Part shown: positions 6,845 to 51,607 of the stretch, piece by piece | Layout: each line of letters begins with the position of its first letter | Numbering within the stretch: position 1 is the first letter of the stretch | Assembly: GCF_002954545.1 (NCBI RefSeq) | Contig: NZ_MSCH01000003.1 | Location: 2,395,991-2,459,990, forward strand | Direction of reading: 5' to 3' | DNA length: 64,000 nucleotides | Source of the DNA: Psychrosphaera saromensis | Lineage (GTDB): Bacteria; Pseudomonadota; Gammaproteobacteria; Enterobacterales; Alteromonadaceae | Position numbers and translations under genes: made by a program | Notes under the pieces: generated by a model | What the model was told of the DNA's origin: nothing | The model's database searches: none | The model's input: only the letters and a program-made list of their open reading frames with translations

Positions 6845-6853
6845 CTTAGCGTA

Positions 6854-6949
6854 TAACAAACGCCTGAACTCCGACAATGATTAGTTGTCACGGTTTTGGC
6901 AAACAACGCAAAAAGCCACGCCAACACATTGCGTGTTAGGCGGGCGTTA
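6854..6949 (+). repeat. attC site, family A
   Basis: Starts TAACAAACGCC and ends GGCGGGCGTTA; the inner arms TTTTGGCAAACAACGC and AAGCCACGCC are shared with the other family A sites. It closes the truncated cassette beside the IS. Confidence 0.92.
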
Positions 6950-6973
6950 GATTTATATTGGAGTTACCCGCAC

Positions 6974-7345
6974 ATGGATGAACAATTAATTACATTACTT
7001 GTAGACAAAGTTGTAAGTGATGTTAGCTTTTGGACTGCTTTAATTGGATTAGGTGGCGTTGTTATCGGTGCTTTAATTGCTATCATTGGTAATGTTATTA
7101 TTTATAAAATGCAAAATAAGCAGCAAGTAACTATTGATGAGGCTAGGAAAGAGCTTCTTAATAAAATGTTAAGTGATTCAAGATTTTCAGAAGGCAGATC
7201 GTTAGAAACTTTATCAAAGGTTACTGGTTCGCAACTAGATGAATGCAGAAGGCTTTTAATCGGTATCAAAGCAAGAGGATTTACACTTTCTGATGGTCGA
7301 GAAGGCTGGGTTTATATCAAGAATAGACCTTTATCTGCACAATAA
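6974..7345 (+). CDS. Cassette protein: one TM segment, C-terminal helical domain
   Basis: A 123-residue protein starting MDEQLITLL. The ATG at 6974 is preceded by GGAG at 6960. An upstream TTG-started extension only translates the attC site and is rejected. One hydrophobic segment (about residues 18-45, FWTALIGLGGVVIGALIAII) probably anchors it in the inner membrane. The remaining part (DEARKELLNKML to GREGWVYIKN) is cytoplasmic, possibly a small winged-helix fold. No known family was recognised. Confidence 0.75.
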   Translation: MDEQLITLLVDKVVSDVSFWTALIGLGGVVIGALIAIIGNVIIYKMQNKQQVTIDEARKELLNKMLSDSRFSEGRSLETLSKVTGSQLDECRRLLIGIKARGFTLSDGREGWVYIKNRPLSAQ

Positions 7346-7348
7346 ATC

Positions 7349-7447
7349 TAACAAGAGAATAAATAGTGATTCACTTTAGTTTGTCATTTTTAGTTGCAAA
7401 CACCGCAATAAAACTGCCAAACTAGTTCACACATTATTCAGGCGTTA
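7349..7447 (+). repeat. attC site, family C
   Basis: Starts TAACAAGAGAAT and ends TTCAGGCGTTA, with inner TTAGTTGCAAACACCGC and AAACTGCCAAACTAG. Nearly the same as the sites at 10202 and 47486. Confidence 0.9.
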
Positions 7448-7464
7448 TAACTCAAGGAGGATTT

Positions 7465-7692
7465 ATGAGTACGAATCAAAGTAATCAGAATATATTTCGT
7501 TTTATTTTACTTAAAGGTGTTTTAGGTTGGGGTATTCCTACGGCTATTGTTTTTCAATTAATTATGCATTTAACGGGTGAACGAAACTTTTTCGATGGGC
7601 TAATTTCTTCTATAATAATATTTCCAATTACAGGGATATTTTTTGGTTATTTTCTGTGGAAGTCAAAAAGTAAAAAATCACTTAAACAATAG
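7465..7692 (+). CDS. Cassette protein: small two-TM membrane protein
   Basis: A 75-residue protein preceded by a strong AAGGAGG site 6 bases before the ATG. Two hydrophobic segments (about residues 12-32 and 45-65) are followed by a basic tail (WKSKSKKSLKQ), consistent with a cytoplasmic C-terminus. Function unknown. Confidence 0.78.
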   Translation: MSTNQSNQNIFRFILLKGVLGWGIPTAIVFQLIMHLTGERNFFDGLISSIIIFPITGIFFGYFLWKSKSKKSLKQ

Positions 7693-7711
7693 ACTTGTGG
7701 TATTTGAGTTA

Positions 7712-7807
7712 TAACAAGCGCCTGAACTCCGACAATGATTAGTTGTCACGGTTTTGGCAAACAACGCAAAAAGCCACGCCAACACATTGCTTGTTAGGCG
7801 GGCGTTA
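7712..7807 (+). repeat. attC site, family A
   Basis: Family A, from TAACAAGCGCC to GGCGGGCGTTA. It differs slightly from its relatives (CATTGCTTGTTAGG). Confidence 0.92.
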
Positions 7808-7828
7808 TGTTTACATGAGAGTCCTCAG

Positions 7829-8299
7829 ATGGCTGAAAAAATATTAATCGCCTTTATTGCATCAGTGTTTTCCGCGTTTGTTGCTTGGTCAATTGCGTTA
7901 AGAAGGCACCGTAAAACGCAGTTCTGGAATAAGAAACTAGAAGTTTATACATCTACACTATCCTGCCTTCACGAATTGAAGAAGGTGAGTCATCAGATTT
8001 TAGATGATACGACCAAGAAGAGTAGTGAAGAGGTTGCAGCCCTAATAAAAAATTTTAACAATCAGAAACACGACTTACATAAGTATCGCGACCTTGGCTA
8101 TTTACTTATATCTGATGAGGCAGAAGAATCTTTAGTATGGTTAATAGTGAATTTAGAAGTTAGCGCCGACAGCCATCAAATAGTAACGTCGGACTTAGAA
8201 ACAGATATAGAGGTATATGAAGCGGATGAAAATTTACTGAATATTGATAAATGTATATCTCTATTTAAAGATGCAGCTAAAGATGATTTGCAGGTATAA
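7829..8299 (+). CDS. Cassette protein: membrane-anchored, cytoplasmic helical
   Basis: A 156-residue protein starting MAEKILIAFIASV. The start is ATG 7829, 22 bases after the attC end; the longer TTG frame is attC translation. One N-terminal TM segment (about residues 4-22) ends in a basic stop-transfer RRHRKTQ. A charged helical domain rich in Glu, Asp and Leu follows. Function unknown. Confidence 0.75.
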   Translation: MAEKILIAFIASVFSAFVAWSIALRRHRKTQFWNKKLEVYTSTLSCLHELKKVSHQILDDTTKKSSEEVAALIKNFNNQKHDLHKYRDLGYLLISDEAEESLVWLIVNLEVSADSHQIVTSDLETDIEVYEADENLLNIDKCISLFKDAAKDDLQV

Positions 8300-8302
8300 A
8301 CA

Positions 8303-8395
8303 TAACAAGTCACTCAAAAGGACAAAAAACAGTTGGTTTTTGCTCCTTCGTCGCTTATTTTAACCAACTATTTTTTGCCTCTTAGTGGGGCGTTA
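8303..8395 (+). repeat. attC site, family B (VCR-like)
   Basis: Starts TAACAAGTCACT and ends AGTGGGGCGTTA, with inner arms CAGTTGGTTTTTGC and TTAACCAACTA. Confidence 0.9.
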
Positions 8396-8413
8396 TGTTT
8401 TATAGGACTTACA

Positions 8414-8737
8414 GTGAAAATTTTACTCTCTTTATTTTTATTTTGTAGTTTAAATGCTCTGGCCAATTCTTTTGTTGCGAAAGGTAAAATCCAGGAAATA
8501 ACTTTAGTTGAAGGGCGTAACGTTATGGTTGAAATCTCACATCAACCACATAAAGATGATTGCCAAGGTGATCGGTTTTATCTGAGCGTAGAAGATGAAA
8601 TAGGATTACAAAATAATTTAATGCTTTTAAATACGGCTTTAGCAAACAAATACACAATTACTTTACATCAAACAACTGGGGCAGAATGCACTGGAAATAA
8701 AGTATTTTTTAACATTGTAAAAGTACAAACGTATTAA
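8414..8737 (+). CDS. Cassette protein: small secreted protein
   Basis: A 107-residue protein read from GTG 8414 (AGGACTT ribosome site). The first 17 residues (KILLSLFLFCSLNALA) form a clear signal peptide with an ALA cut site. The mature part of about 90 residues has two cysteines (DDCQGD and AECTGN) that could pair in the periplasm. No family recognised. Confidence 0.78.
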   Translation: MKILLSLFLFCSLNALANSFVAKGKIQEITLVEGRNVMVEISHQPHKDDCQGDRFYLSVEDEIGLQNNLMLLNTALANKYTITLHQTTGAECTGNKVFFNIVKVQTY

Positions 8738-8743
8738 AAAACA

Positions 8744-8839
8744 TAACAAGCTCCTTAACTCCGACAATGTTTAGTTGTCATGTTTTTGGCAAACAACGCA
8801 AAAAGCCACGCCAACACATTGCGTGTTAGGCGGGCGTTA
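8744..8839 (+). repeat. attC site, family A
   Basis: From TAACAAGCTCC to GGCGGGCGTTA; the left arm CTCC rather than CGCC weakens pairing with GGCGGG. Confidence 0.9.
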
Positions 8840-8875
8840 TACGCTTCGATAATTTTGAGCCTTTAGGAACTTAAT

Positions 8876-9352
8876 ATGTTTATGAACAGAGTTTTTCTTG
8901 TTAGTGCATTAATCGTGATAGTGTTATTCGGTTGTAAGCCAAATACAAGTGTGGAAGTCTGGAATTGCTTTCAAGAAACTAAAATAAACGAGGATTGGAT
9001 TGGGATAAGCGAGAGCACATCAGAAATTCGTGATGGTGTATATGGTGAAACGAACTCTACAGTCATTGTCAGGGAAATATCTACCAATAAAGAGTCATTA
9101 TTGAAATCAAAAGTAACTTTTGACTTTCATAAAGATGGTAACTCCGTGGAACAAACATTAATTACAGCAGACTGGGAAATTATTAATGATGAGTTAAATG
9201 TATTTTCTGAAGGAAGAGCTAGTAACCTTCTTCCTAGCATTGGTTCAACTTTATATGGGACTCAAGAGTCATTAGATAATGGAGCAGTCAAAACTACTTA
9301 CGATTCAGGTTTAACAACGGAGTGTAAATTAGTTGACGATAGATCTCATTGA
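8876..9352 (+). CDS. Cassette lipoprotein, 158 aa
   Basis: An N-terminal hydrophobic stretch and the lipobox VLFGC (Cys near residue 20) indicate a lipoprotein; the mature part is probably periplasmic or outer-membrane bound. ATG 8882 (third residue) is an alternative start. Function unknown. The last 15 codons occur again next to the IS at 6797, so this cassette once existed in two copies. Confidence 0.78.
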   Translation: MFMNRVFLVSALIVIVLFGCKPNTSVEVWNCFQETKINEDWIGISESTSEIRDGVYGETNSTVIVREISTNKESLLKSKVTFDFHKDGNSVEQTLITADWEIINDELNVFSEGRASNLLPSIGSTLYGTQESLDNGAVKTTYDSGLTTECKLVDDRSH

Positions 9353-9361
9353 TTTAGCGTA

Positions 9362-9457
9362 TAACAAACGCCTAAACTCCGACAATGTAATGTTGTCATG
9401 GTTTTGGCAAACAACGCAAAAAGCCACGCCAACACATTGCGTGTTAGGCGGGCGTTA
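9362..9457 (+). repeat. attC site, family A
   Basis: From TAACAAACGCC to GGCGGGCGTTA. The last A is also the first base of the next gene's ATG. Confidence 0.92.
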
Positions 9458-9741
9458 TGAGTACTATGAGAAATTGGTTAATTTTAGCGTCATTGTTATT
9501 AGTTTCTTGTACTAGTACTAATATCAAGAAGCGAGATGCATTTGTAACGTGGGATGAGGCGATAGTAATATTGAACTCTGGAAATGTGGATTCTGCATTT
9601 CAAGCGCACAGTTTATATGTAGAATTGCATTTAAAAGATGGTTCGATTGTAAAAACCACATCGCCTAAGATTGATGAAATACTTAGAGAAATTCGAAGGT
9701 GTGGCAAAAAATGCACGGGCATTTCCATGATGCTAGAGTAG
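9457..9741 (+). CDS. Cassette lipoprotein, 94 aa; start codon inside attC junction
   Basis: The ATG is formed by the attC crossover (GCGTTATG), so the cassette's first bases supply the start. ATG 9466 (fourth residue) is an alternative. The lipobox LLLVSC marks a short lipoprotein. The mature part has a WDEAIVILNSG helix and two close cysteines near the end (RRCGKKC). Function unknown. Confidence 0.72.
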   Translation: MSTMRNWLILASLLLVSCTSTNIKKRDAFVTWDEAIVILNSGNVDSAFQAHSLYVELHLKDGSIVKTTSPKIDEILREIRRCGKKCTGISMMLE

Positions 9742-9747
9742 TACTCA

Positions 9748-9842
9748 TAACAAGCGCCTTAACTCCGACAATGTAATGTTGTCATGGTTTTGGCAAACAA
9801 CGCAAAAAGCCATGCCAACCATTGCGTGTTAGGCGGGCGTTA
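9748..9842 (+). repeat. attC site, family A
   Basis: Like the other family A sites but 1 base shorter (GCCATGCCAACCATTGCG). Confidence 0.9.
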
Positions 9843-10297
9843 TGTTTCTAAGTGAATATGTCTAAACTCTGCTCAAAATTATTCAAAGTATCCGATTCTG
9901 TATCTGGCGGAATTCTAGTTGTTTCGATTATAGTGGCACTATTGGCTTTTATCGTGCCGCCAGTTGCACTAGTTGTTACTGCAATTATGCTAGGTTCTAA
10001 TTTAGGGAGTTGGCCTTTATTCTATATTATTGCTTTCCTCACCTTTACATATCTAACGTACAGGCATAATTTTGTTTCAGTGTTTTGCCACCTTGCATTA
10101 ATCCTATTGCTGTTATTCAGTGGTAGCATCCCATATTTATATATAGTATTGTTTTTAGTATTTTTAATGCCTTATATAACCATCTATAGAGAGGCGATAC
10201 ATAACAAGAGAATGAATAGTGATTCACTTTAGTTTGTCATTTTTAGTTGCAAACGACGCAATAAAACTGCCAAACTAGTTCACACATTATTCAGGCG
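9840..10297 (+). repeat. 458-bp cassette duplicated exactly in array 2
   Basis: From the base after the G of one crossover to the G of the next, this 458-bp unit reads the same as 47124-47581 with no difference found by eye. The flanks differ on both sides. The unit begins and ends at G^TTA points, as expected for integrase-mediated movement of a whole cassette. Confidence 0.95.
9852..10232 (+). CDS. Cassette protein: three-TM membrane protein (copy 1)
   Basis: 126 residues from GTG 9852, or 124 from ATG 9858. About three or four hydrophobic segments cover residues 18-110 (GGILVVSIIVALLAFIVPP onward), so it is an inner-membrane protein. The last ten codons (KRMNSDSL) and the stop lie inside the attC site, so attC supplies the C-terminus. 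Identical to the protein at 47136. Function unknown. Confidence 0.75.
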   Translation: MNMSKLCSKLFKVSDSVSGGILVVSIIVALLAFIVPPVALVVTAIMLGSNLGSWPLFYIIAFLTFTYLTYRHNFVSVFCHLALILLLLFSGSIPYLYIVLFLVFLMPYITIYREAIHNKRMNSDSL

Positions 10298-10300
10298 TTA
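10202..10300 (+). repeat. attC site, family C
   Basis: From TAACAAGAGAAT to TTCAGGCGTTA; overlaps the 3' end of the preceding coding frame. Confidence 0.92.
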
Positions 10301-10318
10301 TGCATTTTAGGAGTTTCG

Positions 10319-10780
10319 GTGAAATATAATGTTTTATGGATAAATATTTGGAAAAAACTTACCAAGTTTATGAGTTTAGCGATTTCAATTCCGGTTTCTT
10401 TTGTATTTGTTATTCGTTTTTTTAAGAATGATATGAGTGTAGAGAAAACTTTTGAGCACATTACCTTAATTCAATTACCTTTATTTTTCTTAGGCATAAT
10501 TGCTTTTTCCGCTTTCTTTTCGTTTCTTATTGCTATTTTGATTCGGCTTGCTGCTGTTGAAATACAAGATGGAAATCTAATTGGTCGTAACTATTGGTAT
10601 TTTAAAAAAACGATACCTATTCATGCTATTTCACAGTTTTACCCTTTTAGTAATAATGGCATTGAAGCAATAGTCGCAGATGCAGGAGTTCATGGTAAAG
10701 TTTATATTTCTACACAGACTGAAAATTTAGATGAACTACTTGAATACCTTGAAGAAGGTAGTGGTGCAGGCAATGCATAA
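10319..10780 (+). CDS. Cassette protein: two-TM protein with possible PH-like tail
   Basis: 153 residues from GTG 10319, with TAGGAG 9 bases upstream. Two TM segments (about residues 18-38 and 58-80) precede a cytoplasmic part (VEIQDGNLIGRNYWYF to ELLEYLEE) whose strand-rich pattern and final helix resemble a bacterial PH domain. That is an inference. The stop codon TAA is the first three bases of attC. Confidence 0.73.
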   Translation: MKYNVLWINIWKKLTKFMSLAISIPVSFVFVIRFFKNDMSVEKTFEHITLIQLPLFFLGIIAFSAFFSFLIAILIRLAAVEIQDGNLIGRNYWYFKKTIPIHAISQFYPFSNNGIEAIVADAGVHGKVYISTQTENLDELLEYLEEGSGAGNA

Positions 10781-10868
10781 CAAGGCAATCAAGAGGGACT
10801 AAAAACAGTTTGCTGTTTCGTTCCTCAACATTTTAGCAAACAATTTTTAGCCCCTTATTGAGGCGTTA
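10778..10868 (+). repeat. attC site, family B
   Basis: From TAACAAGGCAATC to TTGAGGCGTTA, with arms CAGTTTGCTGTTTC and TTAGCAAACAA. Confidence 0.9.
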
Positions 10869-10896
10869 AGTAGCCAAGGAAATTACGGCGTTTAAA

Positions 10897-11322
10897 ATGA
10901 CCTACGAAGAATTTTATTACAGCATTGATTGCAAGTTTCCTTACCATCAAGAAAGTGAGTGGAAGCGAATCATTGAGCAATCAATTGAAATAGGTGAAAA
11001 CGCGCCTTTTCTCGTACTTCACGAAATATGCAGAGTGCCAGCCTCGGAGAAGCTGGATCAAGTAAAGCATATGGAAATGTATAAATATTGGAAGCAATCG
11101 TTTGCCAGCCCAGTGCAGGACATCGTTGAGCCAGCTTCTCTTTCATACATCAACAAAACTGAGATAACAGATTCCGAAGCACTAGATATAATGGAAAGAC
11201 TTTCACCGTTTCCAAAATCCTATAATGCGCTTCAAGTTGTCTTATTTTCGTGCCCAGATGATGATGAACTGGTCGACGAAAAATATGAAAATATTGTAGC
11301 TATGTGGAAATCGGCTACTTAA
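10897..11322 (+). CDS. Cassette protein: 141-aa soluble hypothetical
   Basis: Starts MTYEEFYYSID with AAGGAAA 15 bases upstream. No signal peptide or TM segment. The sequence is acidic with several tryptophan and tyrosine residues and ends ENIVAMWKSAT. The stop shares bases with the attC start. No family recognised. Confidence 0.75.
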   Translation: MTYEEFYYSIDCKFPYHQESEWKRIIEQSIEIGENAPFLVLHEICRVPASEKLDQVKHMEMYKYWKQSFASPVQDIVEPASLSYINKTEITDSEALDIMERLSPFPKSYNALQVVLFSCPDDDELVDEKYENIVAMWKSAT

Positions 11323-11415
11323 CAAGCGCCTAAACAACGACAATGTAAAGTTGTCATGGTTTTGGCAAACAACGCAAAAAGCCACGCCAACACATTGCGT
11401 GTTAGGCGGGCGTTA
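11320..11415 (+). repeat. attC site, family A
   Basis: From TAACAAGCGCC to GGCGGGCGTTA, with a small change (AAACAACGACAATG). Confidence 0.92.
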
Positions 11416-11434
11416 TAAGCCACAGGAGTTCGGC

Positions 11435-11809
11435 GTGCAATTCTTCTTCATCATAGCTTTCTCAGTGCTCTTTATTGGATTTCAACTGAATGCGTTTATT
11501 CAACGAAAAAGAGGATTACTTGTATCAATAGTGTTTACTTCTGTTGTTATAGTCTTGTTGTGTATTTATGCATTTTTTACTGAGTCTTCTTCATACGCTA
11601 GAGAGTCCCAAACAATTAAATTAATTGTTGTTAATTTTATTATTTTTCTAATACCGTCAGTTGTTATTGTCTGGCTAGCTTGGATAAGCAGAGCTGTTAA
11701 ACCTATGACTTTACATATAATATCTATTGTTGTTGCAATTTTACTTACAGCTGCATTCCCATTAATAGCATTGTTTACAAGTTGTTATACGGGTTTAGAT
11801 TGTATATAA
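11435..11809 (+). CDS. Cassette protein: four-TM membrane protein
   Basis: 124 residues from GTG 11435, preceded by AGGAG. The longer frame from 11351 is attC translation and is rejected. Four hydrophobic segments fill most of the protein (about residues 2-20, 27-48, 63-83 and 94-115). The tail CYTGLDCI carries two cysteines. Function unknown. Confidence 0.75.
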   Translation: MQFFFIIAFSVLFIGFQLNAFIQRKRGLLVSIVFTSVVIVLLCIYAFFTESSSYARESQTIKLIVVNFIIFLIPSVVIVWLAWISRAVKPMTLHIISIVVAILLTAAFPLIALFTSCYTGLDCI

Positions 11810-11817
11810 GTGGCTTA

Positions 11818-11911
11818 TAACAAGGCATTTAAACGGAAAATTTACAGTTGGCTGTTTTTCGTTCCTCAAACATTATAGCCAACTATAATTTTCCGCTTAA
11901 TGCGGCGTTAT
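11818..11911 (+). repeat. attC site, family B
   Basis: From TAACAAGGCATTT to ATGCGGCGTTA, with arms CAGTTGGCTG and TAGCCAACTA. Confidence 0.9.
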
Positions 11912-11928
11912 AAGTTTAGGAGAGTTCA

Positions 11929-12360
11929 GTGTCTAAATTCATTATTGTACTTTTCTTATTAAGTTTTAGTTTGAGTGCTCAAGAGAAAGTTATGGATAAC
12001 ATACCAAATAAAAATATCACGATTGAACAGCTTGATGAGATGTTCAGTAGTATCACCGAACAAGGTCAATGGGATTTATCCCAGCCATTACTTTGGGGTT
12101 ACTTCTTCACCGATAATGATCCGAATAAATTAGAATTAGCTATGCCTAAAATACAGGCAATGGGTTACTCAGTCGTTGGAATATTTCAGGCTGAAAAAGA
12201 AGAAGAAAATGAACCAGACTTATTCTATCTTCATGTTGAAAAGCCAGAAATTCACAATAGTAAATCCCTCGATAAAAGAAACGATGAGTTCTACATTTTT
12301 GCATATCAAAACGGCTTAGATTCATACGATGGAATGGATGTTGGACCTGTTGCGCAATAA
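11929..12360 (+). CDS. Cassette protein: secreted RraB-like protein
   Basis: 143 residues from GTG 11929, with AGGAGAG upstream. Residues 1-17 are a signal peptide (FIIVLFLLSFSLSAQ). The rest carries the pattern of the RraB family (RNase E inhibitor): WGYFFTDND, a MGYSVVGIF strand, FYLHVEK, SLDKRNDEFYIFA and the closing YDGMDVGP. RraB itself is cytoplasmic and binds RNase E, so a signal peptide here argues for a different periplasmic role. The family call is by remembered motifs. Confidence 0.75.
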   Translation: MSKFIIVLFLLSFSLSAQEKVMDNIPNKNITIEQLDEMFSSITEQGQWDLSQPLLWGYFFTDNDPNKLELAMPKIQAMGYSVVGIFQAEKEEENEPDLFYLHVEKPEIHNSKSLDKRNDEFYIFAYQNGLDSYDGMDVGPVAQ

Positions 12361-12365
12361 ACTTA

Positions 12366-12457
12366 TAACAAGCTGTTAAAGCAGGACAAAATACAGTTGG
12401 CTGTTTTCGTCCCTCAACATTTTAGCCAACTAAATTAGCCCCTTAACGAGGGCGTTA
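12366..12457 (+). repeat. attC site, family B
   Basis: From TAACAAGCTGTTA to CGAGGGCGTTA, with arms CAGTTGGCTGTTTTCG and TTAGCCAACTA. Confidence 0.9.
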
Positions 12458-12478
12458 TGTTTACCATAAGGATCGGTT

Positions 12479-13006
12479 ATGACCTCAAAAATTTATATAC
12501 TTTCATTTGCATTATTACTTTCAGGATGTAAATCCACTCCAATAGAGGCAATATATACAGAACTTGATCCTACCCCTTGGACCATTGGGTATCAAAAAGA
12601 TTTCGGAGTAGGTAACGGCTATATAAGAGAATGGGTTCCAAAAGGTGAAAATATTAAGTCTTGGACAAAATTATTTTCAATAGAGTTTTTGGAAAATGAA
12701 AAAACGCCAATACATAAGTATTCAAATAACTTTTTGAAGAAAAGACAAGAGCAGTGTTCAGGAACTAAATACAAGATATTAAAGGAAACTGACTTTAGCC
12801 GAACTTACATAATTAATTTTCCATCTTGTGCTGGCCAAGAGGCACAGTCAGAAATAACTCGAATGTTCCAAGGTAATGATGGTTTGCATCGTCTATCTTA
12901 TGCGGAAAAATCAGCACGTTTATCTCAGGAAGTTATTACTAAGTGGAACCAAGAGTTACAAAATTCTTATGTTGTAAAGGGCCCTAACAAAACTCGAATC
13001 AGGTAA
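12479..13006 (+). CDS. Cassette lipoprotein, 175 aa
   Basis: Starts MTSKIYILSF with lipobox LLLSGC (Cys near residue 17). ATAAGGAT precedes the ATG. The mature part has two further cysteines (EQCSGTK, PSCAGQ) that could form a disulfide. Function unknown. Confidence 0.78.
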   Translation: MTSKIYILSFALLLSGCKSTPIEAIYTELDPTPWTIGYQKDFGVGNGYIREWVPKGENIKSWTKLFSIEFLENEKTPIHKYSNNFLKKRQEQCSGTKYKILKETDFSRTYIINFPSCAGQEAQSEITRMFQGNDGLHRLSYAEKSARLSQEVITKWNQELQNSYVVKGPNKTRIR

Positions 13007-13009
13007 ACA

Positions 13010-13104
13010 TAACAAGTCGTTGAAGTCGGATTCGTAACAGTTGGCTCGAATTCGCTTCGCTCAGAAAGTTTAGCCAACTGTTCCTTACCTCTTAACGAGG
13101 CGTT
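13010..13104 (+). repeat. attC site, family B
   Basis: From TAACAAGTCGTTG to AACGAGGCGTT, with arms CAGTTGGCTCGAA and TTAGCCAACTG. The next base is G, not A, because the palindromic element abuts the GTT. Confidence 0.85.
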
Positions 13105-13250
13105 GAGGCCGTAGAATAACTCTTTTTTAAGAAAAATGGCCGTTTTTATGGGTTCAAAATGCATTGGCTAGTGCGAGAAAAGCGCTTAGCATTTGTTATA
13201 GGAGCTCGATTTTTCATCAATTTTGGCTGTTGGAGTAATTCTACAGCCTC
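13105..13250. mobile_element. 146-bp palindromic ORF-less element (copy 1)
   Basis: Bounded by an 18-bp inverted repeat with 2 mismatches: GAGGCCGTAGAATAACTC at 13105-13122 and GAGTAATTCTACAGCCTC at 13233-13250. Flanked on both sides by GTT (13102-13104 and 13251-13253). No gene inside; it holds further inverted arms (AAATGC with GCATTT, and a near-palindrome around GGCCG). A copy with a few base changes lies at 49531-49676 in array 2, also flanked by GTT. It is either an ORF-less cassette or a MITE that targets attC. Confidence 0.8.
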
Positions 13251-13280
13251 GTTATGTTTCACTAGAAATGGTTCTGCACA

Positions 13281-13505
13281 ATGAAAGTGTTTTGATACGT
13301 ATTATATGTAATTGCTTCACTATTAATTAGTTTTTTATACTCAATCCTTTCAGGCGTAGTTGGAAAAATGCAGGAAGATATTTGCCAGTTGTATAATGAA
13401 ATGTATTGAGATCATGTCTTGATTACATTGCTACAGCTAATGTTGTTTGGTTTGGTTGCATTTATTCTTAATAAAGTAGATTTATTAAATAAAAAATTCT
13501 TATAA
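13281..13505 (+). pseudogene. Broken cassette gene with two in-frame TGA codons
   Basis: From ATG 13281 one frame runs 74 codons to TAA 13503-13505 but is broken by TGA at 13293-13295 and 13407-13409. Reading both as Trp gives a plausible two-TM protein (IASLLISFLYSILSGVVG and LITLLQLMLFGLVAFIL). Two TGG-to-TGA changes are the simplest explanation. The region up to 13661 also holds a 40-codon ORF from ATG 13525 (MIVICFFEVP, stop 13645-13647). No attC lies between these and the DUF218 gene. Confidence 0.6.
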
Positions 13506-13524
13506 CTACATTTGTAGTACAAGT

Positions 13525-13647
13525 AATGATAGTCATATGTTTTTTTGAGGTACCTATGAAATCAGATACAATTTCTAGTATCGGGTATCAGGCGAATAGT
13601 TGTCCAAGTCTTTTGGGTATTATTTCCAAAATTATATCCACTGATTA
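13525..13647 (+). CDS. Short ORF before the DUF218 gene
   Basis: 40 codons from ATG 13525 to TAA; an inner ATG at 13555 follows a GAGGTACC stretch. It sits between the broken two-TM gene and the DUF218 gene without an attC, so it may be part of the same multi-gene cassette or a remnant. Low support for being real. Confidence 0.25.
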
Positions 13648-13661
13648 AGGAGGGTGGTTAA

Positions 13662-14213
13662 ATGTTTTTAAAATCAATATTACTGAGTGTTTTTCTGTAT
13701 TTTATTTTTGTTTTTTATATAGTTGTCGATTCTAGAAATAGCACTGATTTCAAAGCAGATGTAGGCATAGTGTATGGGAATAAAGTTGAGCTAACAGGAA
13801 AGCCGTCATCTAGATTGGAAGCTCGATTAAAAGCCGGTGCACACCTTTATGAAAAAAAATTAATAGGTAAATTGATAGTAAGTGGTGGCATTGGAAAAGA
13901 AGGATTCGATGAAGCTAAAATTATGGCTCGTTACCTTCTAAATAACGGTGTTAATAGAGGTGATATATTAATTGACAGTAATGGTTATAATACCAATATG
14001 ACGTCAATCAACGCTTTTAAATTAGTTGGCGTAGAATCATCAGTTGTCGCTATTTCTCAACAATATCATATATCGCGAGCTAAAATGTCATTGAGTAATA
14101 TTGGTTTTAAAGAAATCTATGGCTTCTCTCCTGATTACACTGAGTTTCGTGATGTTTATGCATATTTACGAGAAGTAGCTGCATGGTGTAAATACTGGTT
14201 GTTAAGCTTATAA
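13662..14213 (+). CDS. DUF218 (SanA/YdcF/ElyC-like) membrane protein
   Basis: 183 residues with a strong AAGGAGGGTGG site before the ATG. One N-terminal TM segment (residues 3-22), then a DUF218 domain: ADVGIVYGNKVE, SRLEARLKAGAHLY, KLIVSGG, EAKIMARYLLNNGV, then QQYHISRAKMSL. E. coli members (SanA, ElyC, YdcF) relate to envelope and peptidoglycan homeostasis. It is the last gene of a cassette longer than its neighbours. Confidence 0.87.
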   Translation: MFLKSILLSVFLYFIFVFYIVVDSRNSTDFKADVGIVYGNKVELTGKPSSRLEARLKAGAHLYEKKLIGKLIVSGGIGKEGFDEAKIMARYLLNNGVNRGDILIDSNGYNTNMTSINAFKLVGVESSVVAISQQYHISRAKMSLSNIGFKEIYGFSPDYTEFRDVYAYLREVAAWCKYWLLSL

Positions 14214-14218
14214 AAACA

Positions 14219-14321
14219 TAACAAGTTGCTACACTCGGACTCGATACAGTTGTCGCGGTTTTTGCTAAAAGAAAAGACAGCAAAAACAGCACCAACTTAC
14301 TCGCCGGTGAGCAAGGCGTTA
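14219..14321 (+). repeat. attC site, family D
   Basis: From TAACAAGTTGCTAC to GAGCAAGGCGTTA, 103 bp. The inner arms GTTTTTGCT and AGCAAAAAC differ from families A-C; the ends resemble the site at 47016. Confidence 0.88.
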
Positions 14322-14337
14322 GCATTCAAGGGATATA

Positions 14338-14958
14338 GTGAAGTACGTTTCATATTATGATATTTCAACAGAAGGCTTTTTTGATGGAGTGCTTTTTCCA
14401 TTCATTTTAATGTTCTTTTTTATTTCTATTGCTGTCGGGTTACTCATAAGCAAAAAGAACTATTCTGGTTCCGACTCAGAAACTATTACCAAATTGAAAT
14501 TTGGTAAGGTTTGGGCAATAGCGGCTCTCTTTATGGTTGTAACTTCACTTTATGGCTTAATAAATTCAAAAATAGAAAATAAAAATTCTTTTTCGAATAA
14601 CCTAGAGATAAAGACAATCGAAGGTAAGATCTCAAAATATACCGAATTAAAAAAAGAAATTGGTTTTTCTTCCTTTTTTGTAGCTTCTGAAAAATTTGAA
14701 ACGTTTAGCCCGTTTAGAGATTGTAAGTACCCTAAGTGTGGCCTATTCAATAATTTAAATGTGAGAATTACATACACGCATACTTTTATTAATAACATCA
14801 CCAAAAACGATGATAAATTATTTGGTGTGGAAGTGATTAAAGCCCCACATGAAAATAAAATATTAAAAATTGAACTCAAAGAATCAGATTTTAACTTTAT
14901 TACTGAAAGAAATAATAAAGCAAGGCAAAGGTGTTTAAATCAAGGTGTGTGTAGTTGA
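14338..14958 (+). CDS. Cassette protein: 206-aa two-TM protein
   Basis: Reads from GTG 14338 after AAGGGAT. Two TM segments (about residues 17-38 and 60-79) are followed by an extracytoplasmic part with paired cysteines (DCKYPKCG and RCLNQGVC). The layout suggests an inner-membrane protein with a disulfide-stabilised periplasmic domain. No family recognised. Confidence 0.75.
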   Translation: MKYVSYYDISTEGFFDGVLFPFILMFFFISIAVGLLISKKNYSGSDSETITKLKFGKVWAIAALFMVVTSLYGLINSKIENKNSFSNNLEIKTIEGKISKYTELKKEIGFSSFFVASEKFETFSPFRDCKYPKCGLFNNLNVRITYTHTFINNITKNDDKLFGVEVIKAPHENKILKIELKESDFNFITERNNKARQRCLNQGVCS

Positions 14959-14962
14959 ATGC

Positions 14963-15055
14963 TAACAAGGCATTCCAAAGGACTAAAAACAGCTGGCTGT
15001 TGTTCGTGCCTCACACATTTTAGCCAGCTATTATCAGCCCCTTAAATGGGCGTTA
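14963..15055 (+). repeat. attC site, family B
   Basis: From TAACAAGGCATTCC to AATGGGCGTTA, with arms CAGCTGGCTGTTG and TTAGCCAGCTA. Confidence 0.9.
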
Positions 15056-15062
15056 TATTTTT

Positions 15063-15356
15063 CTAGAGTGCGGAGTTAACATCCATACTTTTATGTAATA
15101 TACGCACTATGAGGATTTGATTGTCTTTGTGCTCTTTGTAATAAATCACATGACTAGCTTGTGGGTATTTGCTGTAACCTTCTCTAATGTAATCGCACTT
15201 AATACCTAACTCGGGTTCACCAGCTAATAAATGGAACGTGCTATCTAATACTTTTAGGTAATCATTCCGTTGAGAGGGTCCCCAAGTTATTTGGGTATAT
15301 TTAGCTATTTTAATTAAGTCTGTTTTGGCTTTAGAAGATAATACAAACTTAATCAT
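15063..15356 (-). CDS. parE: ParE/RelE-superfamily toxin
   Basis: A 97-residue toxin of the ParE type (MIKFVLSSKAKTDLIKIAKY, TWGPSQRNDYL, YYKEHKDNQILIVRILHKSMD), a fold that poisons gyrase in characterised ParE proteins. It is transcribed opposite to the other cassettes. Its ATG overlaps the antitoxin stop by 1 base. Reverse-oriented toxin-antitoxin cassettes with their own promoter are common in sedentary integrons and are thought to limit array loss. Confidence 0.88.
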   Translation of the reverse strand: MIKFVLSSKAKTDLIKIAKYTQITWGPSQRNDYLKVLDSTFHLLAGEPELGIKCDYIREGYSKYPQASHVIYYKEHKDNQILIVRILHKSMDVNSAL

Positions 15357-15595
15357 TAATGGTTATCTTCATCTAATTCAATCAATAAGCTTTCATAGCT
15401 GTACTCAGCAACACCGCTTTGCTCGCCTTGGATTAACATATTACGTAAATTTAAAAGCTTAGTTTCTTGATCTTCCAAGACCCTTAATCCAGCTCTAACA
15501 ATTTCACTTGCTGAGCCATAACGACCAGTGTTAAGTTGTTGGTTTATAAACTGATCAAAATGATCGCCTAGTGTAACGCTTGTATTTTTAGCCAT
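15356..15595 (-). CDS. parD: ParD-type antitoxin
   Basis: 79 residues from ATG 15595 (MAKNTSVTLGDHFDQFINQQ), a ribbon-helix-helix N-terminus; RYGSASEIVRAGLRVLE is typical of ParD. An acidic tail (LIELDEDNH) would bind the toxin. The GAGG ribosome site lies 8 bases upstream. The longer frame from 15691 would run through the promoter and attC and is rejected. The antitoxin precedes the toxin, as usual. Confidence 0.9.
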   Translation of the reverse strand: MAKNTSVTLGDHFDQFINQQLNTGRYGSASEIVRAGLRVLEDQETKLLNLRNMLIQGEQSGVAEYSYESLLIELDEDNH

Positions 15596-15608
15596 GCTGT
15601 AAACCTCA

Positions 15609-15630
15609 TAGGTACCTATATATAATATAT
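15609..15630 (-). promoter_or_regulatory. Putative ParDE operator/promoter
   Basis: A perfect 12-bp palindrome ATAGGTACCTAT (15609-15620) lies just before parD, next to an AT-rich stretch that could hold a -10 box. It is a candidate autoregulatory site for the ribbon-helix-helix antitoxin. Confidence 0.5.
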
Positions 15631-15647
15631 TATGGTATAAAGAATAT

Positions 15648-15738
15648 AACAAGTCACTCAAATGGACAAATAACAGTTGGTTTTTGCTCATTCGTCGCTT
15701 ATTTTAACCAACTATTATTTTCCTCTTAGTGAGGCGCT
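15648..15738 (+). repeat. attC site, family B, altered crossover
   Basis: From TAACAAGTCACTC, with arms CAGTTGGTTTTTGC and TTAACCAACTA, ending GTGAGGCGCTA. The expected GTTA reads GCTA, so the crossover triplet is damaged and this cassette is probably fixed in place. Confidence 0.8.
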
Positions 15739-15820
15739 ATTAACAGGGCACAAGTCTTCCAACGCTTCGCTCCACACTATAACTAATTATTTTATTACCT
15801 CTTTGCGAGACGTCAATAGT
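15739..15820 (+). repeat. Decayed attC-like stretch
   Basis: TTAACAGGGCAC to GCGAGACGTCA keeps fragments of family B (CTTCGCTC, TTATTACCTCTTTGCGAG) but lacks a GTTA crossover. Confidence 0.45.
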
Positions 15821-15855
15821 ACAAAAATTTATATCAACTAATACGGAGTATTTTT

Positions 15856-16047
15856 ATGTCTGAGACAAAAGGTAAACCTCAAATAAAAGAATCAAATGAC
15901 AATTTAGATCCTCTTAGAATGCAAACCGGATTGGCACTTGCTGATTCAATGACAAAATAAAAAACGCTAACAATTATTGTAGTTGTTGGTGTGTTGGCAT
16001 TTTCTGGGTTTGTGTATTTTTTATATAAAATGGCAGGTATGCAATAA
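15856..16047 (+). pseudogene. Broken small single-TM protein gene
   Basis: From ATG 15856 (CGGAG upstream), 34 codons run to TAA 15958-15960. The same frame then continues 28 codons to TAA 16045. The second part (LTIIVVVGVLAFSGFVYFLY) is a tail TM segment. Ignoring the inner stop gives a 63-residue tail-anchored protein. Likely a decayed cassette gene. Confidence 0.5.
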
Positions 16048-16063
16048 GCAACGAATATCAATC

Positions 16064-16178
16064 TAATAAGCCGTTAAAACATTGCAGCAAACACTTGTCT
16101 GTTGCTTTAATGTCACTTATTGTAGACAAAAATTTAAAGCCTTTAAACTGGTGTGTGTGGATATTAACTAGGGCGTTA
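16064..16178 (+). repeat. Degenerate attC at the array end
   Basis: Begins TAATAAGCCG (TAACAA with one change) and ends ACTAGGGCGTTA. The middle matches no other site. Confidence 0.5.
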
Positions 16179-16440
16179 TCATCAAAATATGTTTATCAAA
16201 TTTAGCTATATTAATTAGTTTTACTTCAACCTCGGTATTAGCAAATGATGATCAATTTGATTACGATAATTTTGTTAAACAGTATCATCTAGCCATTATT
16301 AATACGCAAATCCCCAGTGCATCTAAAGAGGACTTAGAGCATTATTATCATTTCTAACTGAAGATATTGATAACCAACACTTTCCTAATGCTCCCGATGA
16401 CTCTAGAGAGCCTGACGGTAAAAAATTAAAACGCATTACT
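16178..16440 (+). pseudogene. Broken secreted protein, possibly NTF2-like
   Basis: The crossover that would give GTTATG reads GTTATC, so the start is lost. The frame then reads a signal peptide (SNLAILISFTSTSVLA) and NDDQFDYDNFVKQYH. A frameshift near 16340 is needed to continue into LLSFLTEDIDNQHFPNAPDD. The FVKQYH...LLSFLTEDI pattern recalls SnoaL/NTF2-like proteins, at low certainty. The shifted frame runs on into the region before the RCC1 gene. Confidence 0.45.
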
Positions 16441-47011: not shown

Positions 47012-47015
47012 GCCC

Positions 47016-47126
47016 TAACAAATTGCTCCAGTTGACGCATCGGTCTACGCTCCTTTTTGTGCATTCGCGGTGCTCATTGTCGCACAAAAATCCACTACAA
47101 CCGCTGCGCAACTGAGCAAGGCGTTA
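47016..47126 (+). repeat. attC site, family D-like, 111 bp
   Basis: From TAACAAATTGCTCC to GAGCAAGGCGTTA, with a long inner hairpin (TTTTTGTGC/GCACAAAAA). Confidence 0.88.
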
Positions 47127-47581
47127 TGTTTCTAAGTGAATATGTCTAAACTCTGCTCAAAATTATTCAAAGTATCCGATTCTGTATCTGGCGGAATTCT
47201 AGTTGTTTCGATTATAGTGGCACTATTGGCTTTTATCGTGCCGCCAGTTGCACTAGTTGTTACTGCAATTATGCTAGGTTCTAATTTAGGGAGTTGGCCT
47301 TTATTCTATATTATTGCTTTCCTCACCTTTACATATCTAACGTACAGGCATAATTTTGTTTCAGTGTTTTGCCACCTTGCATTAATCCTATTGCTGTTAT
47401 TCAGTGGTAGCATCCCATATTTATATATAGTATTGTTTTTAGTATTTTTAATGCCTTATATAACCATCTATAGAGAGGCGATACATAACAAGAGAATGAA
47501 TAGTGATTCACTTTAGTTTGTCATTTTTAGTTGCAAACGACGCAATAAAACTGCCAAACTAGTTCACACATTATTCAGGCG
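47124..47581 (+). repeat. 458-bp cassette, second copy
   Basis: Identical by eye to 9840-10297 of array 1; flanks differ. Confidence 0.95.
47136..47516 (+). CDS. Cassette protein: three-TM membrane protein (copy 2)
   Basis: Same 126-residue protein as at 9852-10232, including the C-terminus encoded by attC. Being second in the array, it is close to where integron cassettes are usually expressed, unlike copy 1. Function unknown. Confidence 0.75.
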   Translation: MNMSKLCSKLFKVSDSVSGGILVVSIIVALLAFIVPPVALVVTAIMLGSNLGSWPLFYIIAFLTFTYLTYRHNFVSVFCHLALILLLLFSGSIPYLYIVLFLVFLMPYITIYREAIHNKRMNSDSL

Positions 47582-47584
47582 TTA
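47486..47584 (+). repeat. attC site, family C
   Basis: Same as 10202-10300 up to the crossover; then TTAGAG instead of TTATGC. Confidence 0.92.
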
Positions 47585-47595
47585 GAGTTTCTTCA

Positions 47596-47940
47596 ATGTC
47601 ATACGATAAAATCATAGTCAGTGAAAATGGCGAAGAGTTTCCATATTCAGAATCATTTGATGAGGACTCTTATTATTACGAAGTAAGTATCGTTCTTGAT
47701 GATCGTGATGGTGAATTATTCATTTCAAAATGGGGTTCCCATATTGCATTTGACGACGACGGTAGTTGGTTGGATTTTAAAATAGCACCTAATGAATTTT
47801 TTCCTAATCAAAAAGAGTTAACTCACGAAAATATACTCTCTTACATGGGAACTTTGCTAGATAGAGAATCTGAGGGTAAAGTGTTATCTAAAGATGAGGT
47901 AGAAAAGCATTATCAAAGGTTTTTAAAATCAGAGCAATGA
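47596..47940 (+). CDS. Cassette protein: 114-aa acidic soluble hypothetical
   Basis: Starts MSYDKIIVSENGEEFPY, 11 bases after the crossover; no strong ribosome site. Very acidic (FDEDSYYYEV, LDDRDGE, AFDDDGSWLDF). A helical C-terminus (KDEVEKHYQRFLKSEQ). No signal or TM segment; no family recognised. Confidence 0.72.
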   Translation: MSYDKIIVSENGEEFPYSESFDEDSYYYEVSIVLDDRDGELFISKWGSHIAFDDDGSWLDFKIAPNEFFPNQKELTHENILSYMGTLLDRESEGKVLSKDEVEKHYQRFLKSEQ

Positions 47941-47945
47941 AACTC

Positions 47946-48041
47946 TAACAAGCGCCTAAACTCCGACAATGTAAAGTTGTCATGGTTTTGGCAAACAACG
48001 CAAAAAGCCACGCCAACACATTGCGTGTTAGGCGGGCGTTA
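47946..48041 (+). repeat. attC site, family A
   Basis: From TAACAAGCGCC to GGCGGGCGTTA; the same layout as the family A sites of array 1. Confidence 0.92.
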
Positions 48042-48057
48042 GGGGGCAAGAGTTATC

Positions 48058-48468
48058 ATGATCGTTCAGCATATTATTGAAGATTTAGAATCAGTGTTGA
48101 CTTCAACACCTGAGGCCTCGAGTTTTGAGGTGGCATTCGCCAGTTACATTGATGATGACTTTGAGCAAATAGAATTTAAAAGTATTGAAGCCTTTAATTG
48201 GGATGAGGATGAAGAGTTTTTCCTAGTACCAACAGGTATCGCTAAATATTACAATCTTGAAGAGAATGTATATTCTGCTGAAACGTTTTTAAATCAATTA
48301 AAAAATATTGAAAACACCTCTGTTTTAAATTTTGTTACCTTCGCACGAGCTAGAACAAAAATAGCAAAAGACGGTAGTGTTGCTTCCTTAAACTCACCAC
48401 TTTGGGGAACAGGAATTCATAAAACTGAAAAGCTAGTATATTTTTATCACGGCAAGCAACCAGAATAG
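48058..48468 (+). CDS. Cassette protein: 136-aa soluble hypothetical
   Basis: Starts MIVQHIIEDLESVL. Acidic N-terminal half (YIDDDFEQIEFKS, WDEDEEFF), more basic C-terminal half (FARARTKIAKDG, GIHKTEKLVYFYHGK). No signal or TM segment; no family recognised. Confidence 0.73.
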   Translation: MIVQHIIEDLESVLTSTPEASSFEVAFASYIDDDFEQIEFKSIEAFNWDEDEEFFLVPTGIAKYYNLEENVYSAETFLNQLKNIENTSVLNFVTFARARTKIAKDGSVASLNSPLWGTGIHKTEKLVYFYHGKQPE

Positions 48469-48473
48469 CCCCC

Positions 48474-48569
48474 TAACAAGGGTTTTCAAGTCGGACAAAT
48501 TACAGTTGGCTTTTTGTTCGTGCCTCACTTATTTTAGCCAACTGCAATTTTCCGCTTAAAACGGCGTTA
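48474..48569 (+). repeat. attC site, family B
   Basis: From TAACAAGGGTTTT to AACGGCGTTA, with arms CAGTTGGCTTTTTG and TTAGCCAACTG. The final A starts the next gene's possible ATG. Confidence 0.9.
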
Positions 48570-48871
48570 TGTTTGAGTCAGGTATGGATGAAGATTTAAA
48601 GAAAAAAGTAGATGTAGTAGTTGGATTGAGCCGTCTTGCAGGTGGCACATTGATTCTTGTTGGTAGTATTTTGTTGTTCGTATTTACACAAGCTGCGCTA
48701 GACCCAAATGCTGTAATAGAAATTAATGGAGCTCCAACTAAAGATCAAGCAGATAAAATTATGGCCGCCATTTTTAGTGCTTTATTTCCAATAGCAGGTT
48801 TGTTTTTATCTTTTGCGCCAGCCAAACTTCTTGATAAATGGGCTGCAAAAATAATCAGCCGTTTGAGTTAA
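48569..48871 (+). CDS. Cassette protein: two-TM, 100 aa
   Basis: ATG 48569 is formed at the crossover; ATG 48584 (MDEDLKKKV) is equally possible. Two TM segments (about residues 22-42 and 66-84, GGTLILVGSILLFVFTQ and IFSALFPIAGLFLSF) flank a short polar loop. Function unknown. Confidence 0.72.
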   Translation: MFESGMDEDLKKKVDVVVGLSRLAGGTLILVGSILLFVFTQAALDPNAVIEINGAPTKDQADKIMAAIFSALFPIAGLFLSFAPAKLLDKWAAKIISRLS

Positions 48872-48880
48872 TCTCAAACA

Positions 48881-48976
48881 TAACAAACGCCTGAACTCCG
48901 ACAATGTAAAGTTGTCATGGTTTTGGCAAACAACGCAAAAAGCCACGCCAACACATTGCGTGTTAGGCGGGCGTTA
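48881..48976 (+). repeat. attC site, family A
   Basis: From TAACAAACGCC to GGCGGGCGTTA. Confidence 0.92.
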
Positions 48977-48988
48977 TAAGGCTAGAGA

Positions 48989-49432
48989 ATGGTTCGGTAT
49001 TTGTGTTCAATATTTTTTATCTGTACGTTAGCTAATGCATCTGAACAAGTTTGCGAAGATCAGCAACAAGCTATTGACCAGCAATTTAAAACAATTAAAG
49101 ATATGATCATTATCTTGGATAAAAATGATGGTGCACCTACTGATGATAGTTATTCGGTTCGCTTTATAAAAAAGCCCAATAAATGGGATTCTATTTCTAA
49201 GTGGGTTTATGTTCCTAAGTCGAGCAATATTATTATAAACTCAATTGCTCTTAGTAAAGATAAGTGCAAAATACCTCATCATGATGAATGGCTTGATTGT
49301 TGGATTAAGACAACAAATGCAACTTACCATAATGATAGTAATGAATATAAGTTTAAAGTTAGTGGTGTTCCAGAGGATAAATATTTAGGTTGTAAATCAT
49401 CAAATGAATTTTATAACTGGGTAGCGTCATAG
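48989..49432 (+). CDS. Cassette protein: secreted, Cys-containing, 147 aa
   Basis: A short signal peptide (RYLCSIFFICTLANASEQ, cut near ANA/SEQ) then EQVCEDQQQAIDQQF. Further cysteines (DKCKIPHH, DCWIK, LGCKSS) would allow two disulfides in the periplasm. No family recognised. Confidence 0.73.
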   Translation: MVRYLCSIFFICTLANASEQVCEDQQQAIDQQFKTIKDMIIILDKNDGAPTDDSYSVRFIKKPNKWDSISKWVYVPKSSNIIINSIALSKDKCKIPHHDEWLDCWIKTTNATYHNDSNEYKFKVSGVPEDKYLGCKSSNEFYNWVAS

Positions 49433-49437
49433 CCTTA

Positions 49438-49530
49438 TAGCAAGGCAATCAAGCAGGAAAGTTTACAGTTGGTTTTTGCTCCTGTGTCGCTTATTTAAAC
49501 TAACTATTATTTGCCTCTTAGTGGGGCGTT
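49438..49530 (+). repeat. attC site, family B, altered left end
   Basis: Begins TAGCAAGGC, with TAAC changed to TAGC, and ends GTGGGGCGTT next to the palindromic element. Confidence 0.8.
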
Positions 49531-49676
49531 GAGGCCGTAGAATAACTCTTTTTTAAGAAAAACGGCCGTTTTTATGGGTTCCAAATGCATTGCCTAGTGC
49601 GAGAAAAGCGCTTAGCATTTGTTCTAGGAACTCGATTTTTCATCAATTTTGGCTGTTGGAGTAATTCTACAGCCTC
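49531..49676. mobile_element. 146-bp palindromic ORF-less element (copy 2)
   Basis: Same 18-bp ends as copy 1 (49531-49548, 49659-49676) and the same length. Flanked by GTT at 49528-49530 and 49677-49679. A handful of base differences from 13105-13250 (for example AACGGCC against AATGGCC) show it is not a very recent copy. Confidence 0.8.
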
Positions 49677-49704
49677 GTTAGCAATACATCAACAAGGAGT
49701 AGCA

Positions 49705-50280: not shown

Positions 50281-50289
50281 CCGTATTGC

Positions 50290-50479
50290 TAACAAGTATT
50301 TAACAAGGCCACCTATCTTAATTTGATTCAAAATCTACACATTATTTTAAGTTTAGAGGTTGGATAAGTTTCATTTAAAATGGATGTCCACGTTATTTAC
50401 GACTCCGCTAATTTGTCACTTTTAGTTGCAAACACCGCAATAAAACTGCCAAAATAGCTTACACATTATTTAGGCGTTA
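50290..50479 (+). repeat. attC site, family C, lengthened to ~190 bp
   Basis: Begins TAACAAGTATTTA and ends TTTAGGCGTTA. The right half (TTAGTTGCAAACACCGC, AAACTGCCAAAATAGC) is family C, but about 90 extra bases sit between the left end and the right arms. Confidence 0.75.
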
Positions 50480-50495
50480 TGTTTCTAGGAGAGGT

Positions 50496-51599: not shown

Positions 51600-51607
51600 A
51601 TAAAATA

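What the first reader, a model, noticed from the sequence alone, without database searches (positions are those of the whole stretch)
13102..13253. A 146-bp palindromic element sits exactly at attC crossovers in both arrays
At 13105-13250 and 49531-49676 lie same-length copies of an ORF-less element with 18-bp inverted ends. In both cases it is flanked by GTT, the three bases at which IntI cuts attC. Upstream is a complete family B attC; downstream a new cassette begins. Either it is an ORF-less cassette whose whole body is a recombination hairpin, or a MITE with a 3-bp GTT duplication that targets attC as the IS1111-attC group does. It lacks the GCCTCAAC left core an ordinary cassette should carry, so it fits neither class neatly.
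Basis: partly seen in the sequence, partly recalled or inferred. Interest (0 to 1): 0.85.

Follow-up and report, generated by a model that had tools for sequence, protein, structure and literature searches.

The report
Tiny transposon targeting integron cassette junctions
The 146-base element is a very small non-coding transposon that, like its full-length relatives, sits mostly at the exact point where integrons cut and join gene cassettes, so it can colonise cassette arrays without breaking genes.

Summary
In detail: two 146-bp copies (5 differences) with 18-bp inverted ends lie between GTT triplets, each exactly at an attC crossover. The element is not a cassette: no attC model hit inside, and the downstream cassettes start at the GTT after it, matching their own attC left cores. 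It is best read as a MITE. Nine elements of 1855-2038 bp with the same ends sit at the same place in attC; four carry an uninterrupted IS1182-type DDE transposase, and one decayed copy is in this genome. Of 98 end pairs in related genomes, 97 are real and occupy 94 sites; an attC model built from this window ends at the site in 76 of 94 (five of these weakly). A flank-free search with the 18-bp end found 103 ends in mostly marine gammaproteobacteria; 50 of 64 GTT/ATT-flanked ends abut attC. Distant homologues (38-53% identity) share ends and GTT, but the model supports attC at only 6 of 21 sites, and some copies are clearly elsewhere. attC-targeting IS are known in IS1111; I saw none reported for IS1182. 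Filed as a new attC-targeting variant of IS1182 with MITEs. Transposition in trans and target recognition are inferred.

The parts
13105..13250 (+). MITE copy 1, 146 bp
13102..13104 (+). GTT, attC-proximal copy of the presumed 3-bp target duplication
13251..13253 (+). GTT, distal copy of the presumed duplication; first bases of the next cassette
13105..13122 (+). attC-proximal terminal inverted repeat, copy 1
13233..13250 (-). distal terminal inverted repeat, copy 1
13006..13108 (+). host attC of copy 1; model hit ends 4 bases inside the element
   Evidence: 64.4 bits
49531..49676 (+). MITE copy 2, 146 bp
49528..49530 (+). GTT, attC-proximal copy of the presumed duplication
49677..49679 (+). 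GTT, distal copy of the presumed duplication
49531..49548 (+). attC-proximal terminal inverted repeat, copy 2
49659..49676 (-). distal terminal inverted repeat, copy 2
49434..49534 (+). host attC of copy 2
   Evidence: 50 bits
13251..14324 (+). cassette downstream of copy 1 (end approximate); its attC (14215-14324) has the left core AACATAAC that matches its own start GTTATGTT
6850..16181 (+). first attC array (host of copy 1)
47012..52096 (+). second attC array (host of copy 2)

Best explanation
The element is a non-autonomous MITE mobilised in trans by an IS1182-like DDE transposase. The transposase recognises the ~18-bp ends and joins the element to attC at the IntI crossover triplet, duplicating GTT. 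The end that reads GTT-GAGG usually faces the attC. Insertion between cassettes spares their genes, so the elements persist; lying in one direction, they act as direct repeats through which homologous recombination can duplicate or delete cassettes. Shown: shared ends, GTT flanks, attC position, and one cassette duplication with a hybrid MITE. Inferred: catalysis in trans, GTT as a duplication made on insertion, and how attC is recognised.
For: Nine elements of 1855-2038 bp with these ends, all flanked GCGTT / GTT-A and all with an attC-model hit ending at the site: L066, L067, L068, L075, L077, L156, L157, L158, L159. Transposase frame uninterrupted in L067, L068, L158, L159. The 509-aa protein of L068 matches DDE_Tnp_1_6 and DUF772 and IS1182 NF033551 at 263.2 bits, cutoff 270. 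L156 is a decayed 1870-bp copy in this genome. 96 oriented elements: GTT proximal 88, distal 87, both 80 (orientation was itself chosen by GTT against AAC). attC hit ends at the site for 70 of 98 pairs at E<=0.1, 76 of 94 sites. Flank-free scan: 50 of 64 GTT/ATT-flanked ends abut an attC hit at E<=0.3; some of these places are also in the first set. Proximal end begins GAGG in 89 of 96, distal in 36 of 96. L080: the middle MITE has the left half of one neighbour and the right half of the other, between two copies of one cassette.
Against: 18 of 94 sites have no model support even at E<=10; by eye five (L013, L014, L016, L040, L103) lack a clear left core. Five of the 76 rest on weak hits (E 0.14-0.82) at the right place. 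No direct empty site was found among held loci. For the 146-bp type I saw likeness to the IS only at the ends, so its transposase is inferred. The copy in this genome is interrupted. In two MAGs 1 of 18 ends has an attC hit. In the class-level set 6 of 21 sites have a hit, and 15 loci retried at E<=10 added none; the model was trained on one genome. In G635 the IS sits at attC in L287 but not in L306 and L312. The IS1182 score is just under the curated cutoff.
Confidence: 0.88

Rival explanations
1. It is an ORF-less integron cassette of 149 bp (146 + GTT) that IntI inserts and excises, using its palindrome as recombination hairpin.
For: Boundaries fall at G^TT of attC; two copies in tandem share GTT with period 149; folded as DNA, either strand pairs the ends.
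Against: No attC model hit inside either copy on either strand at E<=0.1; no GCCTCAAC left core; the downstream cassettes do have left cores that match their own starts. Elements with the same ends and an IS1182-like transposase sit at the same position. Units of the three tandems differ from each other (L003 6, L095 4, L076 2 differences), as successive insertions would.
Confidence: 0.05
2. The transposase reads a short double-stranded motif (about TTA-N5-GC-GTT-A), not attC as such; attC sites match it, and insertions elsewhere are purged because they hit genes. (A rival on target recognition only; it does not exclude the MITE reading.)
For: The two-MAG relatives share T at -10 (16 of 16 sites) and A at -8 (93%) with hardly any attC. 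G635 copies lie at ACGTT outside attC. The own genome has 144 motif sites against 63 attC hits (the attC search scored only 150 of 2298 candidates), so non-attC targets exist.
Against: In the class-level logo the TTA lies one base further out than in the family, which fits natural attC spacing better than a rigid motif. All 5 element-bearing sites found in the own genome (4 MITE sites, 1 IS) are attC hits.
Confidence: 0.4
3. Few insertion events occurred; copies were spread by cassette shuffling and homologous recombination rather than transposition.
For: L080 hybrid MITE and duplicated cassette; some shared neighbours.
Against: Only a handful of pairs among the 96 share an upstream or downstream flank. 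Different MITE types sit at the attC of one cassette family (L019, L044, L095).
Confidence: 0.05

Closest known systems
IS1182 family (IS1272 as studied member)
   Same: IS1182-like transposase by NCBIfam; terminal inverted repeats; target tied to DNA palindromes (IS1272 targets stem-loops and some IS1182 members target palindromes: passages of PMC5678879).
   Different: IS1272 replaces its stem-loop and leaves no target duplication; here attC is kept and GTT flanks both sides.
IS1111-attC group (ISKpn4, ISPst6)
   Same: Insertion sequences that target attC (passages of PMC11187229).
   Different: DEDD transposase, seekRNA guide and subterminal repeats (abstract and passages). I did not look for a guide RNA here. 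The original paper (PMC2447020) is not held, so exact insertion points were not compared.
Group IIC-attC introns
   Same: Mobile elements that target attC (recalled; only a reference title was seen).
   Different: Retroelements with a ribozyme (recalled); this has inverted ends and a DDE transposase relative.
MITEs such as NEMIS and RUP (recalled, no call)
   Same: Short, non-coding, inverted ends.
   Different: Here found mostly at attC crossovers.

Membership tests
MITE | Short, no coding capacity | tested here: met
   146 bp, longest stop-free run 43 codons
MITE | Terminal inverted repeats shared with an autonomous element | tested here: met
MITE | Target-site duplication | tested here: inconclusive
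   GTT on both sides in 80 of 96, but no direct empty site found
MITE | Mobilised in trans by the autonomous element | not testable with these tools
   needs an assay
IS1182 family (the full-length relative) | IS1182-type transposase | tested here: inconclusive
   NF033551 263.2 bits against cutoff 270; next family IS5 38.1 bits
IS1182 family (the full-length relative) | Terminal inverted repeats around one transposase gene | tested here: met
   1855-1862 bp in the four with uninterrupted gene
IS1272-type stem-loop replacement | Target palindrome lost on insertion, no duplication | tested here: not met
   attC retained up to GTT
IS1111-attC group | DEDD transposase of IS1111 type | tested here: not met
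   Pfam and NCBIfam matches are to DDE_Tnp_1_6, DUF772 and IS1182
Integron gene cassette | Own attC with a left core matching the cassette start | tested here: not met

The most novel reading that the evidence does not exclude
A branch of DDE transposons has evolved to read the recombination site of integrons at the very triplet IntI uses, with a proximal end (GTT-GAGG) that rebuilds most of the attC right-hand core. The upstream attC would then stay active, and the element would ride with the downstream cassette as a compound cassette that IntI can move.
Probability: 0.2. Interest if true: 0.8.

Novelty: new variant of a known kind. Interest (0 to 1): 0.62.

Why it matters
It suggests a second, unrelated transposase family that homes to attC, beside IS1111, so attC homing would have arisen more than once. 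The elements are same-direction direct repeats inside cassette arrays and give an IntI-independent route to cassette duplication or loss, with one case seen. They can also confuse cassette annotation. A DDE enzyme that finds attC sites of several kinds makes target recognition by DNA shape against sequence directly testable.

Tried and rejected
Cassette hypothesis: rejected (no attC hit or left core inside). Conserved RNA or hairpin function: as RNA the window copies fold well (+ strand z -3.8 and -5.4, - strand -3.3 and -4.4) and RNAalifold gives 33 pairs on 30 aligned copies, but covariation is no better than shuffles (3 pairs against 1.9, 146 of 500; score reached by 80 of 500), so not claimed. 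As DNA the fold is only modestly better than shuffles (z -1.6 to -2.5). Promoter or terminator pattern in 12950-13450: 0 found. Rfam on 12900-13400: no match up to E=1. Direct empty site: none among held loci; the 40 rows that spanned a junction looked to me like tandem units or other attC-plus-element copies, and I did not go through each (one, L039 against L234, is an attC-region match of 146 bases). Co-mobilisation of MITE plus cassette: three pairs share the downstream cassette but not the upstream one (L020/L085, L019/L090, L060/L070). In the first two the MITEs are not each other's closest, and in the third the elements differ in kind, so independent insertions are likelier; L019 has what looks like an older MITE-end remnant, suggestive only. 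Simple left-core motif test: 63 of 90 family sites, 40 of 56 scan sites, 12 of 19 class sites, 3 of 16 two-MAG sites; control 981 of 4961 RCGTT positions, not cleared of other attC sites. It is crude: variants such as TAGCAAG in the window's own second site are missed. A transposase tree to date attC targeting was not built.

Full report
Observation. The two copies are as described: 146 bp each, 5 differences, 18-bp ends with 2 mismatches, GTT on both sides, no GCCTCAAC inside. A covariance model (R1) of 17 window attC sites finds 27 hits in the window at E<=0.1, the 17 among them by construction; two others end four bases inside the elements, and none lies within them. Both downstream cassettes start at the GTT after the element and match the left core of their own attC. 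The element is therefore an insertion at a cassette junction, not a cassette.

Copies. The genome (8 contigs; this one 3.63 Mb) has 5 copies, one pair in tandem sharing GTT. Of 8 genus genomes including this one, 4 have copies. In the family 26 of 395 genomes match, with only two candidates scored per genome. Of 72,556 plasmid records 5 match, all Pseudoalteromonas.

Full-length relatives. Searching the ends in 25 genomes (matches in 21) showed end pairs 1861 bp apart. Nine elements of 1855-2038 bp are now in hand: L066, L067, L068 (1861), L077 (1857), L075 (2038), and L156-L159 (1870, 1860, 1855, 1862), all flanked GCGTT on one side and GTT-A on the other, and all with an R1 hit ending at the site (weakest L159, E 0.008). 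The transposase frame is uninterrupted in L067, L068, L158 and L159; L066 and L157 have one stop, L077 several, L156 is split by stops, and for L075 only a fragment of about 169 codons was found. The 509-aa protein of L068 gives Pfam DDE_Tnp_1_6 and DUF772 and NCBIfam IS1182 at 263.2 bits, just under the cutoff of 270. L156 is from this genome. Fourteen of 20 genomes examined have a homologue at E<=1e-30. Among 72,556 plasmid records 3 match at E<=1e-60, in Pseudoalteromonas and Catenovulum.

Target statistics. One search listed 98 distinct end pairs in 82 loci (L156-L159 not among them). One is a false pairing (L059) and one was oriented wrongly (L048, where attC abuts the other listed end). 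In the 96 others GTT is proximal in 88, distal in 87, both in 80; orientation had been chosen by GTT against AAC. R1 hits at E<=0.1 end within 4 bases of the expected place for 70 of 98; uniform placement of the 139 hits would give about 0.2 (my arithmetic). At E<=10 five more coincide (L091, L085 at 3284, L051, L025 at 164, L087; E 0.14-0.82), and L048 makes 76. Three elements are second units of tandems, so there are 94 sites: 76 supported, 18 not. One pair of sites (L080) has the same upstream attC by duplication. By eye 13 of the 18 carry a left-core-like sequence and 5 do not. No element other than L048 had an attC hit at its other end.

Flank-free scan. Five are flanked by neither GTT/ATT nor AAC and look like chance (Candidatus Manganitrophus, Ruminococcus, Syntrophomonadaceae, Halothiobacillaceae, Chitinophagales). 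Eighteen are in two MAGs (Bathyaustriella symbiont; N3S-Bin_2): 16 flanked by GTT or ATT, 1 with an attC hit. The other 103 are in gammaproteobacteria, mostly marine genera (Pseudoalteromonas, Psychromonas, Colwellia, Shewanella, Marinomonas, Motilimonas, Psychrosphaera, Paraglaciecola among them) and further MAGs: 64 flanked by GTT/ATT, 50 of these with an attC hit at E<=0.3 ending there, and 39 flanked by AAC, read as distal ends. Of the 14 without a hit, one is cut by the locus start (L183), one follows another element (L249), and L269 shows no attC by eye. Some places are the same as (for example L216 = L028, L250 = L086), so the two sets are not independent.

Wider family. In 369 gammaproteobacterial genomes, 21 including this one have a homologue at E<=1e-40; those outside the own genome are 38-53% identical over the matched part. 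A search of their loci that favoured GTT/AAC flanks found GTT-flanked ends, mostly GAGGCTGTAGAAAA, in 23 of 28 loci (L286-L313, my count). Of 21 distinct GTT sites counted, R1 supports attC at 6 (L287, L289, L291, L300, L302, L310); 15 other loci retried at E<=10 gave none at the site. Several more look like attC by eye (for example L286, L290, L292), and the simple left-core motif is present in 12 of 19 against 981 of 4961 control positions. G635 carries IS copies at an attC (L287) and at two ACGTT sites that are not attC by eye or model (L306, L312). attC targeting is thus well shown for the family around the window, likely but unproven for the distant ones, and not absolute.

Ends and orientation. 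The proximal end begins GAGG in 89 of 96, the distal in 36 of 96. In 13 of 87 short elements the body aligns better reversed relative to attC, clearly in the 10 from G246 and by a small margin in 3 (L040, L072, L103), yet the proximal end is GAGGCT in all 13. Orientation seems to be set by the ends. GTT-GAGG resembles the attC right core (GTTRRRY, recalled) at 6 of 7 positions, which suggests, but does not show, that the upstream attC keeps working.

Consequences. At L080 three MITEs flank two copies of a cassette. The middle MITE has the left half of the third and the right half of the first, the mark of unequal homologous recombination between MITEs. Because the MITEs lie in one direction, they are direct repeats that can duplicate or delete cassettes without IntI.

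What recognises attC. Own-genome counts are 63 attC hits (only 150 of 2298 candidates scored) and 144 sites of TTANNNNNGCGTTA, so a short motif alone is not exclusive to attC; purging of gene-disrupting insertions could contribute. I cannot separate recognition of attC structure from a motif plus selection.

Viral contigs. A pattern anchored on GCGTT matched 4 stretches of IMG/VR; all four show an element like this one at a site that looks like attC by eye (not model-tested).

Literature. I saw no paper that reports IS1182 elements or MITEs targeting attC, in listings (title and start of abstract) of 20 of 547, 20 of 86, 20 of 7,695, 10 of 27,748, 4 of 4, 15 of 54, 15 of 74 and 10 of 99 papers. 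The library holds only open-licence papers, so this is weak evidence of absence. Passages were read of PMC5678879 (IS1272 replaces stem-loops, no duplication), PMC9137128 (nothing relevant), PMC11187229 (ISKpn4 and ISPst6 target attC), PMC12444791 and PMC11616780, which cite the attC-targeting IS1111 papers.

Noticed in passing
window 45736-46314 (-): Integron integrase fragment: matches positions 1-178 of 315 of TIGR02249 (230 bits, cutoff 265), the rest missing, just before the second array.
   Followed up: partly
window 5580-6386 (-): IS3-family transposase just before the first array.
   Followed up: no
L080 4697-6408: Three MITEs and a duplicated cassette with a hybrid middle MITE.
   Followed up: yes
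window 13105 and 49531: The two window copies are direct repeats about 36 kb apart, on either side of chromosomal genes such as glucokinase; recombination between them would delete that stretch.
   Followed up: no
L334-L337: Four contigs labelled viral carry an element like the 146-bp type at attC-like sites.
   Followed up: partly
L019 1237-2193 (-): IS110-family transposase annotated just upstream of the MITE-bearing attC in Pseudoalteromonas sp. Bsw20308.
   Followed up: no
L175, L199 and other JAHXHI contigs: A repeat with the same 18-bp end at many contig ends of a symbiont MAG, at T-N-A-N6-C-GTT-like sites mostly outside attC.
   Followed up: partly
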